DNA of 64,000 nt from Segatella copri. Its GTDB lineage: Bacteria; Bacteroidota; Bacteroidia; Bacteroidales; Bacteroidaceae. Shown piece after piece: positions 57,565 to 61,410 of this stretch. Position 1 is the stretch's first letter; each line of letters starts with the position of its first letter. Made by a program: the position numbers and the translations under genes. The stretch covers positions 434,001-498,000 of the forward strand of contig NZ_CATKVU010000006.1 of the NCBI RefSeq assembly GCF_949820605.1, written 5' to 3'. The notes under the pieces were generated by a model. It was given only the letters and a program-made list of their open reading frames with translations. It was not told the DNA's origin and did not search any database.

Positions 57565-57587
57565 TTTCATCAGCAATAAACAATAAA

Positions 57588-57628
57588 AAACCTCGGAAGA
57601 AAAGCAATCTGCCAATCTTCCGAGGTTT
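57588..57628. terminator. Bidirectional terminator between menB and queF
   Basis: AAACCTCGGAAGA (57588-57600) pairs perfectly with TCTTCCGAGGTTT (57616-57628), with A and T tracts on the two sides. Confidence 0.9.
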
Positions 57629-57635
57629 CTTGTTT

Positions 57636-58091
57636 TTATTCGTGAGTAGCGAATCTCTGCTCTGCCAGTTTCTCGTATTTGGTGCCTGGCTTGCCATAGT
57701 TGGCATACGGCCAGATGCTGATGCCGCCACGAGGAGTAAAGATGCCTGTTACCTCTATATATTTAGGGTCCATCAGTTTGATGAGATCCTTCATGATGAT
57801 GTTTACGCAGTCTTCATGGAAATCGCCATGGTTGCGGAAACTGAAGAGATAAAGTTTCAGACTCTTGCTCTCTACCATCTTTACGTCAGGAATATAGCTG
57901 ATGCGAATCTCTGCGAAATCTGGCTGTCCCGTAATAGGGCAGAGCGATGTAAACTCAGGGCAGTTGAAACGTACCCAGTAATCGTTGCCAGGATGCTTGT
58001 TCACGAAAGTTTCGAGCACCTCTGGCGCATAATCCATTCTATATGTAGTCTTGGCACCTAATGCCTGAAGACCGTCTTCTTTTCTATCCAC
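57636..58091 (-). CDS. queF: NADPH-dependent 7-cyano-7-deazaguanine reductase
   Basis: The 151-residue unimodular QueF has the nucleophile Cys in [14 protein letters not shown] and the NADPH motif [13 protein letters not shown]. It reduces preQ0 to preQ1 for queuosine tRNA modification. The start is GTG at 58091; this matches the N-terminal length of relatives, and no ATG lies nearby upstream. It follows the precursor transporter by 40 bases. Confidence 0.95.
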
Positions 58092-58131: not shown

Positions 58132-58824
58132 TTAGCCGAGGCTGAAGATCTTGAATACATTGTAGGAGATGTTATTGTCGTATGCATCTTCACCTTCATG
58201 CTTCTTTACGTATTTCACTACACGGATGGTCAGAGGCAATACCACAATCTCGTAGGCTGTCTTCAGTATCACCTGCCAGAGCATGAGCCAAGGCAATTCT
58301 GATGTAGGCACCACACCGCCCAGGGCAAGTGGGAAGAAGATAAGACTGTCGCAACTCTCACCTGCAATGGTACTGAGGATGGCACGGGCAGAGAAATGCT
58401 TGCCACCATCGCGGATTTTCATCACGCTCATTACATAAGCATTAGCAAACGAACCGATGATGAAGGCTACGAAAGAGGCTGCTGCAATGCGGGGTGCCAG
58501 ACCGAAGATGGCATGAAAACCGGCATCATTGGTCCAATAAGGCGCTGCAGGAATTACATCGCAGATAGCACCCAGTGCCACGAAGAAGAAGTTCATCGCA
58601 AAGCCGGTCCAGATCAACAGACGCGCTTTCTGATAGCCCCATACTTCACATACCACATCGTTGATGATGTAACTTACAGGGAATACGATGAGTCCACCGG
58701 TAAGGGAAACTGGCCCGAAGGCGATTTGCTTTGTTTCGAGTACGTTTGCTGCAATCAGGCAAACGCAGAAGAGGATGCTGAAAAGCATAAACAGCACGCT
58801 CACTTGAGTTTTTTTCTTGTCCAT
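58132..58824 (-). CDS. Queuosine precursor transporter (YhhQ/QPTR family)
   Basis: From ATG 58824 the product is 230 residues with six or seven helices. Family motifs are visible: L-I-A-A-N-V-L-E-T-K (near residue 27), G-L-I-V-F-P-V-S-Y-I-I-N-D-V-V-C-E-V-W-G-Y, and G-E-S-C-D-S-L-I-F-F. YhhQ of E. coli imports preQ0/preQ1. The TTG-started longer frame (58851) would run through the pseudoknot and is rejected. Directly upstream is a preQ1-I-like pseudoknot, and queF follows. Confidence 0.92.
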   Translation of the reverse strand: MDKKKTQVSVLFMLFSILFCVCLIAANVLETKQIAFGPVSLTGGLIVFPVSYIINDVVCEVWGYQKARLLIWTGFAMNFFFVALGAICDVIPAAPYWTNDAGFHAIFGLAPRIAAASFVAFIIGSFANAYVMSVMKIRDGGKHFSARAILSTIAGESCDSLIFFPLALGGVVPTSELPWLMLWQVILKTAYEIVVLPLTIRVVKYVKKHEGEDAYDNNISYNVFKIFSLG

Positions 58825-58827
58825 TTT

Positions 58828-58858
58828 CTTGTTTTTTACGAGGTTTACCAAGCACTCG
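58828..58858 (-). promoter_or_regulatory. PreQ1-I-like riboswitch (H-type pseudoknot)
   Basis: RNA from 58858 down: P1 CGAG (58858-58855), L1 UG, P2 CUUG (58852-58849), L2 GUAAAC, P1' CUCG (58842-58839), L3 UAAAAAA, P2' CAAG (58831-58828), then AAA and the AUG. The layout, the six-base L2 ending in AC, and the A-rich L3 match class I preQ1 aptamers, in which the last C of L2 pairs with the ligand. P2' closes three bases before the start codon, so ligand binding should block translation. P1 is only 4 bp. Confidence 0.65.
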
Positions 58859-58896
58859 GGTTATTGAATATGATGATTCTTTTCAGAAATCGGCTG

Positions 58897-58904
58897 CAAA
58901 ATTA
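58897..58904 (-). promoter_or_regulatory. -7 element of the queuosine unit
   Basis: The minus strand reads TAATTTTG, placing transcript start ~30 bases before the pseudoknot. Confidence 0.65.
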
Positions 58905-58937
58905 CAACATTTCTTCTTAATAGCCAAATATTTGGGC

Positions 58938-58979
58938 AAAAAAAATGGCTCCAAATACTAATCACTAGCACTTGGAGCC
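58938..58979 (-). terminator. Terminator of the PiT gene
   Basis: GGCTCCAA (58947-58954) pairs with TTGGAGCC (58972-58979). On minus a run of eight T follows. The 184 bases between it and the PiT stop are rich in CTAAA words and hold no gene. Confidence 0.8.
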
Positions 58980-59163: not shown

Positions 59164-61410
59164 TTACTTTTCCATAAACTTCTTTGCAGCTCTTAACTGA
59201 TGTCTCATCACACTCAGGAATTCCTGACTCTCCTGCAGTACGTTGAGATAAACCAGAGAAATCTGCATCAGCGTATTGTCAGTCATGTGCTGGATGCGGT
59301 CGATATGCTTCTTGCGGAGAACTGAAAGCTCGTCTTTGCAGGCATCTGCCTCGGCAAGTATCTCGCGATAGCTGTCATATCTGCCAGTTTCAATCAGTTC
59401 GCAGCTCATGCGCATCAGGTCGTTGATCTTCTGGCGTACAGGAGCAAACTCCTTGATGTATTCAGCAGGAAGCGGATTGAAGTTGTTGTCAACATGTTCC
59501 TTGATTGGGTCGAGCATACGGCGCAGAGAGTAGATAAACTGCTGGTTGCTGTTGGCACCCAGATGGAACCAGGTGTTGCGCTCGATGGCAATCTCGATAG
59601 GCGATTTCTTCAAACCGAGCATCTCCTGACGGCGGAACTTCTTCAGCATATCCTGTTCCTTCTTCAGATCCTTGTTGGCATGACGAAGGTTGCGGGTATT
59701 CTCGTTGGCAAGACCATCCATAATCTGGTTGAACTCGTTCAGGGCGAAGTGGCAGACGTAAGACTGGGTGCGTGAAACCTGACGGCGAAGCAAATCCCAT
59801 ACAATCTCTGGGTCGCGAGAACGCATCATCAGTTGGAAGGTAGTACTCTTGCTCTCTTCCTTAGCCTTCTTGTTATACTGGATGTTGCTGCGGATGAGCA
59901 GGTAGATAACCAAGCCCATGAAGCAAGCCTGGATGCCCACACCACCGAAGTGCATGATGATACAAACAATGGCACAGGCTGCGAAAGCTACACCGGCTGT
60001 GATGAACCAACCACCGATTACACTTAATACACCTGTTACACGGAATACGGCACTCTCGCGGCTCCATGCTCTATCAGCAAGTGAAGAACCCATAGCTACC
60101 ATGAAGGTAACGTAGGTGGTAGAGAGAGGCAACTTCAGGTTGGTACCGATGGTGATCAGCATAGAAGCAAGTACCAGGTTTACGGCTGCACGAACCACGT
60201 CGAAAGCAGCACTCTCCTCGAGTTCAACATCATTCTTGTCGAAACGGCTGTTGATCCAGTTCATCAGTGCCTTTGGCATAAACTGCTTCAACCATGAATC
60301 TGTAGCCTGGCAGTTGCGTACAATCACGCGGGCTGCAGAAGAACTGCCGAACATCTCATCGCCTTCGTCCTGACGGCTCAGGTCAACAGAAGTCTTGATT
60401 ACGTTCTGTGCTTTCTTGGATGTCGCCATGGCGATAATCATTATGGCACCGGCAGCAAGCAGGAAGCCTGGAGTAGTCTTGGCACTCTCCATCAATGAAG
60501 TCATCATAAACTGGTCTGGCGCTGCACCGTTGGCATTTGCCATATAGTCCTGATAAGAAGAGAGACCAGCCAGAGGCACACCGATGAAGTTTACCAGGTC
60601 GTTACCAGCGAAAGCCATAGCCAGGGCGAAAGTACCCATCAGCACTGTAAACTTGAAGATGTTGACACGGCAGAGGTGCAGGAATTCCATTACAACAGCA
60701 GATACCACGAAGGTGATGCAGATGAGGAAACCGAGATTCTGGTCGATGTAATCGCGCACCTCAGCAGGCAGGTAAGGACTCTTGCCCAAACCCTTCATGA
60801 AGATGAAGTAAGAGAGGGCTGTAAAGGCGATACCGCCGAAGATAGCGATGCTGTAGCGGCTGTGCTTGCGGTAGTTAAAGGTGAAAATGATACGGGAAAG
60901 CCACATCACAAAGGCACCAAACACGAAGGCAATGATGACAGATGAGAAGATACCCATGATTACCTCCAACGCCTTGTTGCTATTGAGCAATACGCCATAG
61001 TTGAGGCTGTCGTCGCCATACATCTTCAATGTAGCGAGGATGAAAGCACCACCCAGCAACTCGAATACCAGAGAGACGGTAGTAGAGGTTGGCATACCTA
61101 AGGTGTTGAACACATCCAGGATGATGACATCAGTCACCATGACCGCCAGGAAGAGCGTCATTACCTCTTCGAATGTAAAGTGTTCAGGACTTATGAGACC
61201 ATGGCGGGCGATATCCATCATTCCCGATGACATGATGGCTCCGAGAACCACACCGCAGGATGCGATAATCAGCACCGTGCGAAACTTAGCCACCTTAGCT
61301 CCGATGGCAGATTGCAGGAAGTTGACAGCATCGTTGCTGACTCCTACGAAGAGATCGAACACTGCTAGACAGAGCAGGAAGATCACAATACATAAATAAA
61401 TTGTACCCAT
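59164..61410 (-). CDS. Inorganic phosphate transporter (PiT) with C-terminal PhoU-like domain
   Basis: The 748-residue product has the PiT repeat G-V-S-N-D-A-V-N-F near the N-terminus and A-G-N-D-L-V-N-F-I-G-V-P in the second half, with about ten helices up to residue ~520. Residues ~530-748 form a soluble alpha-helical tail with heptad-like runs, similar to PhoU/DUF47. PiT proteins are low-affinity Pi:cation symporters. The fused tail could regulate transport; in other bacteria it is a separate Pit accessory protein. It is monocistronic. Confidence 0.9.
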   Translation of the reverse strand: MGTIYLCIVIFLLCLAVFDLFVGVSNDAVNFLQSAIGAKVAKFRTVLIIASCGVVLGAIMSSGMMDIARHGLISPEHFTFEEVMTLFLAVMVTDVIILDVFNTLGMPTSTTVSLVFELLGGAFILATLKMYGDDSLNYGVLLNSNKALEVIMGIFSSVIIAFVFGAFVMWLSRIIFTFNYRKHSRYSIAIFGGIAFTALSYFIFMKGLGKSPYLPAEVRDYIDQNLGFLICITFVVSAVVMEFLHLCRVNIFKFTVLMGTFALAMAFAGNDLVNFIGVPLAGLSSYQDYMANANGAAPDQFMMTSLMESAKTTPGFLLAAGAIMIIAMATSKKAQNVIKTSVDLSRQDEGDEMFGSSSAARVIVRNCQATDSWLKQFMPKALMNWINSRFDKNDVELEESAAFDVVRAAVNLVLASMLITIGTNLKLPLSTTYVTFMVAMGSSLADRAWSRESAVFRVTGVLSVIGGWFITAGVAFAACAIVCIIMHFGGVGIQACFMGLVIYLLIRSNIQYNKKAKEESKSTTFQLMMRSRDPEIVWDLLRRQVSRTQSYVCHFALNEFNQIMDGLANENTRNLRHANKDLKKEQDMLKKFRRQEMLGLKKSPIEIAIERNTWFHLGANSNQQFIYSLRRMLDPIKEHVDNNFNPLPAEYIKEFAPVRQKINDLMRMSCELIETGRYDSYREILAEADACKDELSVLRKKHIDRIQHMTDNTLMQISLVYLNVLQESQEFLSVMRHQLRAAKKFMEK

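What the first reader, a model, noticed from the sequence alone, without database searches (positions are those of the whole stretch)
58824..58904. PreQ1-I-like pseudoknot directly controlling a queuosine-precursor transporter in a Bacteroidota
P1 (CGAG/CUCG), P2 (CUUG/CAAG), a six-base L2 ending in AC and an A-rich L3 reproduce the class I preQ1 aptamer, upstream of a YhhQ-type transporter and queF. It ends three bases before AUG, so regulation would act on translation initiation in a phylum that hardly uses Shine-Dalgarno sites. Class I aptamers are best known from Firmicutes and Proteobacteria.
Basis: partly seen in the sequence, partly recalled or inferred. Interest (0 to 1): 0.75.

Follow-up and report, generated by a model that had tools for sequence, protein, structure and literature searches.

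The report
PreQ1 riboswitch before queuosine-precursor transporter
A tiny folded RNA switch that most likely senses a tRNA-modification precursor (preQ1) sits right in front of the gene that imports such precursors in a gut bacterium; it belongs to a group common in its relatives that the standard RNA-family search does not report, and some relatives carry two or three switches in a row or an extra stem.

Summary
On the minus strand, 58858-58828 reads CGAG-UG-CUUG-GUAAAC-CUCG-UAAAAAA-CAAG, an H-type pseudoknot ending 3 nt before the AUG of a TIGR00697 queuosine-precursor transporter, with queF-II next. Rfam reports nothing at gathering threshold, but relatives settle it. Of 148 distinct transporter leaders examined, 99 carry the strict pseudoknot beside the start codon, 38 a near or variant form, 1 lacks P2, 10 show none; shuffles gave 2 hits in 7400. 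P1 shows compensatory changes (covariation 0.273 against 0.062 shuffled, 0/500); P2 compensation rests on few lineages. A model trained on transporter leaders also finds queC and queD leaders: 31 of 35 matches in 247 genomes of the order lie before queuosine genes. The L2 ending in AC, the A-rich L3 and the gene context fit a class I, type II preQ1 aptamer. Most likely mechanism: repression of Shine-Dalgarno-free translation initiation (inferred). PreQ1-I in Bacteroidota is already in print. What looks new lies in relatives: double and triple tandem aptamers (a 2022 survey lists preQ1-I as not found in tandem) and a hairpin inserted in L2 (23 of 249 same-genus genomes). Ligand binding is untested.

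The parts
58925..58928 (-). TTTG, -33-like element of a Bacteroidetes-type promoter, 20 nt before the -7-like box
   Evidence: sequence; the consensus TTTG / TAnnTTTG is recalled, not from a call
58897..58904 (-). TAATTTTG, -7-like box (TAnnTTTG)
   Evidence: TAnnTTTG upstream of the aptamer in 91 of 102 leaders with a strict aptamer; mononucleotide-shuffled 110-nt upstreams 213 of 2960; only 34 of 102 also have TTG 18-26 nt before it
58875..58891 (-). small hairpin GAUUUCU-GAAA-AGAAUC near the likely 5' end of the mRNA; same letters in L043 (nearest genome), not apparent by eye in L001-L004; role unknown
   Evidence: MFE fold; leaders
58855..58858 (-). P1 5' strand CGAG
58853..58854 (-). L1 UG; the U is nearly invariant (90% or more) in the 41 rows of A1
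58849..58852 (-). P2 5' strand CUUG
58843..58848 (-). L2 GUAAAC; ends in AC before the P1 3' strand; C58843 is the predicted preQ1 specificity base (its equivalence to Bsu C17 / Tte C15 is recalled numbering)
   Evidence: A and C invariant in 41 of 41 rows of A1; AC rule for type II from PMC11625349
58839..58842 (-). P1 3' strand CUCG
58832..58838 (-). L3 UAAAAAA, A-rich loop
58828..58831 (-). P2 3' strand CAAG, positions -7 to -4 of the mRNA
58132..58824 (-). queuosine-precursor transporter (TIGR00697), AUG 3 nt after P2
   Evidence: 106.8 bits, cut-off 50.95
57636..58091 (-). QueF-II, preQ1 synthase (GTG start likely)
   Evidence: TIGR03139 170.6 bits, cut-off 86.9
57585..57640 (-). probable intrinsic terminator after queF: CCUCGGAAGA / UCUUCCGAGG then U-run
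   Evidence: sequence by eye; not listed by the automatic scan, whose loop limit of 8 it exceeds
58947..58979 (-). terminator-like hairpin with U-run just upstream, which would end the preceding unit so that the leader starts its own
   Evidence: 1 found; shuffles mean 1.2, so by itself no more than chance

Best explanation
A class I, type II-like preQ1 riboswitch. When preQ1 is plentiful it binds between P1 and P2, its guanine-like face pairing with C58843. Binding locks CAAG (-7 to -4) into P2 and the A-rich L3 (-14 to -8) against P1, so a folded RNA stands 3 nt before AUG. Without ligand the P2 strand is free and the gene is translated. Shown here: the pseudoknot, its conservation and covariation, its gene context, and that no terminator fits between aptamer and AUG. 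Inferred: ligand identity, direction of control, translational level.
For: Anatomy and position. Covariation: 92.5% of 840 cells paired, 5 of 9 pairs with a change on both sides, score 0.273 against 0.062 +/- 0.008, 0/500 shuffles, slid controls at most 0.098. P2 compensation: AUUG/CAAU (L030), CUAG/CUAG (L055, L071), CCUG/CAGG in upstream tandem copies. RF00522: the only E<=0.001 match in 151 family genomes is this site in G116, 29.6 bits, below its cut-off (L051); 5 of 18 relative loci give RF00522 at E<=2, all five at the leader. Model R1, trained on transporter leaders: 31 of 35 matches at E<=0.01 in 247 genomes of the order lie before the transporter (24) or queC (7); one more before queD in G065. 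AGGGG-type Prevotella leaders share UUAACAAAACAAG letter for letter with the Tte aptamer. Mechanism: in Prevotella bryantii a structure of -5.2 kcal/mol at the usual Shine-Dalgarno place gave 0.12 and one of -11.1 gave 0.007 of the protein, with mRNA 0.72 and 0.997, while a -9 kcal/mol hairpin at -21 gave 1.34 (PMC3155529 sections 11-12).
Against: Rfam gathering score not reached in the window or in any of 151 family genomes. The window's own RF00522 alignment (13.5 bits) misses P1. P2 is nearly invariant in A3: its two pairs with double changes owe them to one sequence each. The outermost P1 pair is unpaired in 51 of 93 rows. Nested folding of the leader is no more stable than shuffles (z +1.0), though that program cannot model pseudoknots. 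10 of 148 leaders show no motif and one lacks P2. 4 of 35 R1 matches are not before queuosine genes. No binding or expression data.
Confidence: 0.88

Rival explanations
1. The same aptamer acts, but through premature transcription termination, pausing or mRNA decay, and not through ribosome access.
For: Bsu type II acts on transcription (PMC11625349 section 4). In L177 and L198 the aptamer ends 80 nt before the queC-like start, and in L197 still further (start not resolved), so another expression platform probably exists there.
Against: In the window only 3 nt separate P2 and AUG; in 99 of 148 leaders the strict aptamer ends beside the start codon. No hairpin plus U-run fits between.
Confidence: 0.12
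2. A class I fold with shifted ligand: preQ0, queuine or a related 7-deazapurine, or a second ligand as in type I.
For: The operon has a preQ0-reducing enzyme (QueF) and an importer; class I members differ in stoichiometry and discrimination (PMC11625349, section 4 and passages).
Against: AC before the P1 3' strand is the type II mark; A and C there are invariant in 41 of 41 rows of A1, which were not chosen by the scan. In the scanned leaders AC was required, so those do not test it.
Confidence: 0.12
3. A conserved translational operator bound by a protein, not a metabolite aptamer.
For: Adjacent to the start codon; ligand binding untested.
Against: Topology, L2 AC, A-rich L3 and queuosine-gene linkage all coincide with a known metabolite aptamer, including 13 identical letters with Tte L3-P2' in relatives.
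Confidence: 0.04
4. Chance pairing in an A-rich leader.
For: Rfam is silent at gathering score; nested MFE z is +1.0.
Against: 2 of 7400 shuffles against 100 of 148 leaders; covariation 0/500.
Confidence: 0.01

Closest known systems
PreQ1-I type II riboswitch (Bsu, Tte; RF00522)
   Same: H-type pseudoknot, 2-nt L1 starting with U, 4-bp P2, L2 ending in AC, A-rich L3; AGGGG-type Prevotella leaders share UUAACAAAACAAG with Tte; the mismatched P2 of Bacteroides-like leaders recalls the non-canonical G8-A31 and A10-A32 of Tte
   Different: P1 is only 4 bp in the window; no Shine-Dalgarno sequence; score far below Rfam gathering; in some relatives tandem copies or a hairpin inserted in L2
PreQ1-I type III riboswitch (E. 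coli yhhQ)
   Same: Translational control of a queuosine-precursor transporter gene; AC before the P1 3' strand (PMC11625349 section 4 and passages)
   Different: Type III has UU after the P1 5' strand and buries an AAGG Shine-Dalgarno; here L1 is UG and there is no Shine-Dalgarno
PreQ1-I type I riboswitch (Can)
   Same: Same class and topology; reported from Bacteroidota among other phyla
   Different: Type I has UC before the P1 3' strand and binds two preQ1; here AC
PreQ1-II and preQ1-III riboswitches
   Same: Also preQ1 sensors; PreQ1-II carries an extra hairpin (PMC11262651 passages)
   Different: Larger HLout pseudoknots, reported from Bacillota and Ruminococcaceae (passages); the L2 hairpin of Prevotella relatives is inserted in a class I frame

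Membership tests
PreQ1-I (class I) | H-type pseudoknot P1-L1-P2-L2-P1'-L3-P2' with conserved pairing | tested here: met
PreQ1-I (class I) | A-rich L3 and specificity C just before the P1 3' strand | tested here: met
   window; A1: C and preceding A invariant in 41 of 41 rows, chosen by transporter homology and presence of an AACAAG/T-like tail, not by the AC rule
PreQ1-I (class I) | Lies before queuosine synthesis or transport genes | tested here: met
   transporter, queC, queD
PreQ1-I (class I) | Rfam RF00522 gathering score 39 (a detection threshold, not a structural criterion) | tested here: not met
   window 13.5 bits; relatives at the same site 29.6 and 23.5-27.1
PreQ1-I (class I) | Binds preQ1 selectively and changes fold | not testable with these tools
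   needs in-line probing or ITC
PreQ1-I type II | AC before the P1 3' strand | tested here: met
   GUAAAC; rule from PMC11625349 section 4
PreQ1-I type I | UC before the P1 3' strand and UU after the P1 5' strand | tested here: not met
   AC and UG
PreQ1-I type III | UU after the P1 5' strand and AAGG Shine-Dalgarno in P2 | tested here: not met
   UG, and CAAG followed by AAA
PreQ1-II / PreQ1-III | Match to the Rfam models of these classes | tested here: not met
   neither is listed at E<=10 for 58750-58960 or 58815-58870

The most novel reading that the evidence does not exclude
Bacteroidales use a large preQ1-I lineage, not reported by Rfam at its cut-off, that regulates without Shine-Dalgarno sites and has evolved two architectures that I did not find described for this class: head-to-tail double and triple aptamers before one start codon, and a three-stem form with a fast-evolving hairpin inserted in L2. 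Upstream tandem copies lie beyond the reach of simple start-site occlusion (inferred from the -21 hairpin of P. bryantii), so they would have to work by cooperation, by strand exchange between repeated CUUG/CAAG arms, or by hiding a ribosome standby site.
Probability: 0.6. Interest if true: 0.75.

Novelty: new variant of a known kind. Interest (0 to 1): 0.6.

Why it matters
It gives the Prevotella/Bacteroides group a metabolite switch on queuosine-precursor uptake that the current Rfam cut-off misses, in hosts where the usual translational output (hiding a Shine-Dalgarno site) is not available. That makes SD-free riboswitch control directly testable with a 31-nt element and published Prevotella reporter data. 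The tandem arrays go against a 2022 survey that lists preQ1-I as not found in tandem, and the L2-hairpin form widens what this very small aptamer tolerates. It also qualifies a conclusion, reported in a 2024 review, that preQ1-I riboswitches are absent from commensal bacteria and therefore suitable antibacterial targets (PMC11625349 passage). The window's own copy is a plain single aptamer; the variants are in relatives.

Tried and rejected
Rfam at gathering threshold on the window: nothing. RF00522 over 151 family genomes: 0 over cut-off, 1 sub-threshold, with B. subtilis found as control; Rfam alone would have spoken against the finding. Nested folding of the leader: uninformative. Alignment A2 of 84 cores did not right-justify L3/P2' and was not used for counts; A3 replaced it. 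The sigma-70 scan found nothing on the right strand. Phylum-wide model search: 5 of 395 genomes matched; two (G832, G856) match before or inside unrelated genes, taken as chance; genomes whose leaders do carry a form (G092, G073) were missed, so that search is insensitive. The same holds for the order search (216 of 247 genomes without match, among them G039, G044 and G057, whose leaders L055, L056 and L053 carry forms). In one search four of 35 matches (L183, L187, L188 and G503/L202; E 0.0019-0.0063) are not before queuosine genes. In one search, beside 16 top matches, two tandem copies and the queD site, four weak matches (E 0.055-0.078) were not examined. Three apparent doubles in the relaxed tandem scan (L003, L105, L140) and L231 were judged spurious because the first element lacks the aptamer core; L142/L235 has degenerate upstream copies and is not counted among the 6 of 158. 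The tandem pattern's reversed control gave 1 match (G228) in 399 genomes. L040 and L042 were left out of A1. The leaders without motif, sorted by eye from the 17 'other', are L040, L042, L058, L059, L066, L068, L090, L104, L150, L151; L062 lacks P2. L2 inserts: all 23 fold to a hairpin, but several are singly no better than shuffles; only the mean (z -1.56 over 22 distinct, mononucleotide shuffles) speaks. In one search five loci (L044, L047-L050) were printed from the wrong strand; one search corrected this. In one search L175 was read at a wrong place; searches corrected it (L201). Considered and rejected on the tests listed: chance pairing, type I, type III, preQ1-II/III.

Sampling limits: of the 38 places listed I took 28 (8 given, 20 fetched). 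One search had matches in 239 of 301 genomes, its list of places was capped, and I took the 30 given loci (3 already held) plus 60 chosen by me, leaning to well-conserved transporters; the many weak transporter homologues (E about 1e-20 to 1e-30) were not examined. So 148 is not an even sample.

Full report
WHAT IS THERE. The element is on the minus strand. Read 5' to 3' it is CGAG (58858-58855) UG CUUG (58852-58849) GUAAAC CUCG (58842-58839) UAAAAAA CAAG (58831-58828), then AAA and AUG at 58824-58822. P1 and P2 interlock as an H-type pseudoknot. The downstream gene is a queuosine-precursor transporter (TIGR00697, 106.8 bits, cut-off 50.95); the E. coli YhhQ equivalog model stays far below its cut-off (40.4 against 252). 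Next comes QueF-II (170.6 bits, cut-off 86.9), and after it CCUCGGAAGA...UCUUCCGAGG and a U-run, a probable terminator seen by eye. A terminator-like hairpin at 58979-58947 lies upstream (one such site is no more than shuffles give). TAATTTTG at 58904-58897 fits a Bacteroidetes -7 box (that consensus is recalled). TAnnTTTG lies before the aptamer in 91 of 102 leaders, against 213 of 2960 shuffled upstreams, while only 34 of 102 also have a TTG at the right distance. If the box is used, the mRNA leader is about 65 nt.

IS IT MORE THAN CHANCE? Rfam release 15 gives nothing at gathering threshold in the window; RF00522 appears only at 13.5 bits, and its alignment does not include P1. So the window alone would not convince. 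Relatives do. A strict scan finds the pseudoknot beside the start in 100 of 148, and in 2 of 7400 dinucleotide shuffles. Sorted by form (in which one scan hit of the UUCU type is moved to the Bacteroides-like form): 99 strict, 16 Bacteroides-like with a mismatched P2, 9 with a 3-bp P1, 5 with an L2 hairpin, 2 strict but further upstream, 17 other. By eye, 6 of these 17 are near forms (L034, L035, L036, L038, L117, L130), L062 has lost P2, and 10 show no motif.

COVARIATION. On the first 41 rows (38 distinct): 90.9% of 342 cells paired, score 0.260 against 0.082, 0/500 shuffles. On 94 matches from 100 sources, aligned by a model that contains P1 but not P2: 92.5% of 840 cells, 5 of 9 pairs with a change on both sides, score 0.273 against 0.062 +/- 0.008, 0/500; slid controls at most 0.098. 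The second P1 pair occurs as CG 37, GC 24, AU 23, UG 3, GU 1, UA 1, unpaired 4; the fourth as AU 58, GC 21, UA 15; the outermost is unpaired in 51 of 93. P2 is nearly constant (CUUG/CAAG), with one double change in each of two pairs. Seen over more loci its compensations are AUUG/CAAU (L030), CUAG/CUAG (L055, L071) and CCUG/CAGG in upstream tandem copies. The alignment was fitted to P1, so the P1 figures lean that way; P2 was not modelled. Shuffles do not remove relatedness.

INDEPENDENT SUPPORT. RF00522, built by others, gives in 151 family genomes one match at E<=0.001, below its cut-off, and it is this site in G116 (29.6 bits, L051). In 18 of the relative loci (65,837 bases) its 5 matches at E<=2 are all at the leader; 13 of 18 gave none. 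Model R1, trained on transporter leaders, ranks the transporter leader first in 16 of 16 genomes that I chose for having one. In 247 genomes of the order it gives 35 matches at E<=0.01 in 31 genomes: 24 before the transporter (23 by BLASTP, one by eye), 7 before queC-like genes, 4 elsewhere. Family models confirm QueC in the three of the seven that I tested (L196, L167, L185) and QueD in G065, a same-genus genome whose queD leader carries a copy; the other four queC assignments rest on sequence likeness. The R1 searches miss known carriers (G092, G073, G039, G044, G057), so their counts are lower bounds.

HOW IT PROBABLY WORKS. AC before the P1 3' strand is the type II mark, UC that of type I, and UU plus an AAGG Shine-Dalgarno that of type III (PMC11625349, section 4 read whole and passages elsewhere). 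Published constructs (PMC10639078 passages) contain Bsu AGAGGUUCUAGCUACACCCUCUAUAAAAAACUAAGG and Tte CUGGGUCGCAGUAACCCCAGUUAACAAAACAAGG; AGGGG-type Prevotella leaders carry UUAACAAAACAAG exactly as Tte does, while the window's L3 is closer to Bsu. Tte P2 has non-canonical G8-A31 and A10-A32 (PMC3905878 passages), which recalls the mismatched P2 of the Bacteroides-like leaders. With P2 at -7 to -4 and P1 at -18 to -15 there is no room for a terminator, so ribosome access is the likely output. Bacteroidota lack Shine-Dalgarno sites, and initiation is tuned by mRNA structure and nucleotides before the start (PMC6847099, abstract). In Prevotella bryantii a -5.2 kcal/mol structure there cut protein to 0.12 and -11.1 to 0.007, with mRNA at 0.72 and 0.997, while a -9 kcal/mol hairpin at -21 gave 1.34 (PMC3155529, abstract and sections 11-12). 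A ligand-stabilised pseudoknot ending at -4 would sit in the sensitive zone. Ligand, direction and level of control are inferred.

VARIANTS IN RELATIVES. (a) Tandem copies: L033 two, L050 three, L144 three, L146 two, L147 three (middle P2 with one mismatch), L148 three (middle P2 with two mismatches), that is 6 of 158 loci. A pattern search gave 9 of 399 family genomes, with 1 match for the reversed pattern; 8 of the 9 belong to one genus and are tandem (one, L235, with degenerate upstream copies), one is spurious. A 2022 survey of tandem riboswitches lists PreQ1-I among classes not found in tandem (PMC9481103 section 40, read whole). (b) L2 hairpin: 23 of 249 same-genus genomes carry an L2 of 17-37 nt in the AGGGG frame, with 0 for the reversed pattern. 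In 23 of 23 a transporter and a queF homologue are on the same locus, and all inserts fold to a hairpin; in 20 of 23 the aptamer ends 3-10 nt before the estimated first codon, and in 3 (L212, L223, L225) that estimate falls upstream. The 22 distinct inserts average z -1.56 against shuffles, several near 0 singly. [quoted passage not shown] The window's own copy has neither feature.

WHAT IS NEW. Class I aptamers in Bacteroidota are in print, as is control of yhhQ genes by preQ1 switches. A 2013 survey called preQ1 switches mostly limited to Firmicutes (PMC3766115 passages); passages of three further papers named no preQ1 switch in Prevotella. My searches of an open-licence library listed no paper that I recognised as describing tandem preQ1-I, an L2 hairpin, or a preQ1 switch in Prevotella; several listings were capped and most papers were not opened. 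The 2014 primary survey was not held, so prior listing of these very leaders cannot be excluded. The distribution seems centred on Bacteroidales: 3 of the 5 matching genomes among 395 of the phylum belong to the window's order, and the other two matches are unrelated to queuosine genes, under filters that lose weak matches. The window's nearest named relatives are Segatella copri and kin (97% best-segment protein identity to strain iA622). In G001, the nearest whole genome held, queC exists but only the transporter leader matches R1.

Noticed in passing
L144:397-490(+); L147:478-574(+); L148:1257-1354(-); L050:2185-2291(-); L033:1410-1499(+); L146; L232-L234, L236-L240: Two or three preQ1-I-like aptamers in a row before one transporter start codon; in L144, L146, L147 and L148 the first copy has CCUG/CAGG as P2. 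A 2022 survey lists preQ1-I as not found in tandem.
   Followed up: partly
L063, L064, L065, L069, L070 and L208-L230: Aptamers with a hairpin of variable sequence inserted in L2, still ending in AC before the P1 3' strand (the search pattern required AC), in 23 of 249 same-genus genomes.
   Followed up: partly
L177, L198, L197: Aptamer 80 nt (L177, L198) or further (L197, start not resolved) upstream of a queC-like gene, not beside the start codon, so a different expression platform is likely there.
   Followed up: no
L200:2403-2442(-) in genome G065: A same-genus genome carries a second aptamer before queD, followed by a gene that looks like queE (by eye).
   Followed up: partly
L036, L038, L053, L099-L101, L103, L105, L107, L109 and similar: Leaders with mismatched P2 (CCUAG/CAAGG, CCCAG/CAAGG, or UUCUAG with CAGG), like the non-canonical P2 of Tte.
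   Followed up: partly
L150, L151: Second, diverged transporter copies in genomes G219 and G192, whose other copies (L097, L095) have an aptamer form; these two leaders lack the motif.
   Followed up: no
window 58875-58891 (-): Small hairpin at the predicted 5' end of the leader; present in the near-identical L043, not apparent by eye in L001-L004.
   Followed up: no
window 59164-61410 (-): 748-aa ORF upstream with no NCBIfam family at E<=0.001; looks like a membrane protein by eye.
   Followed up: no
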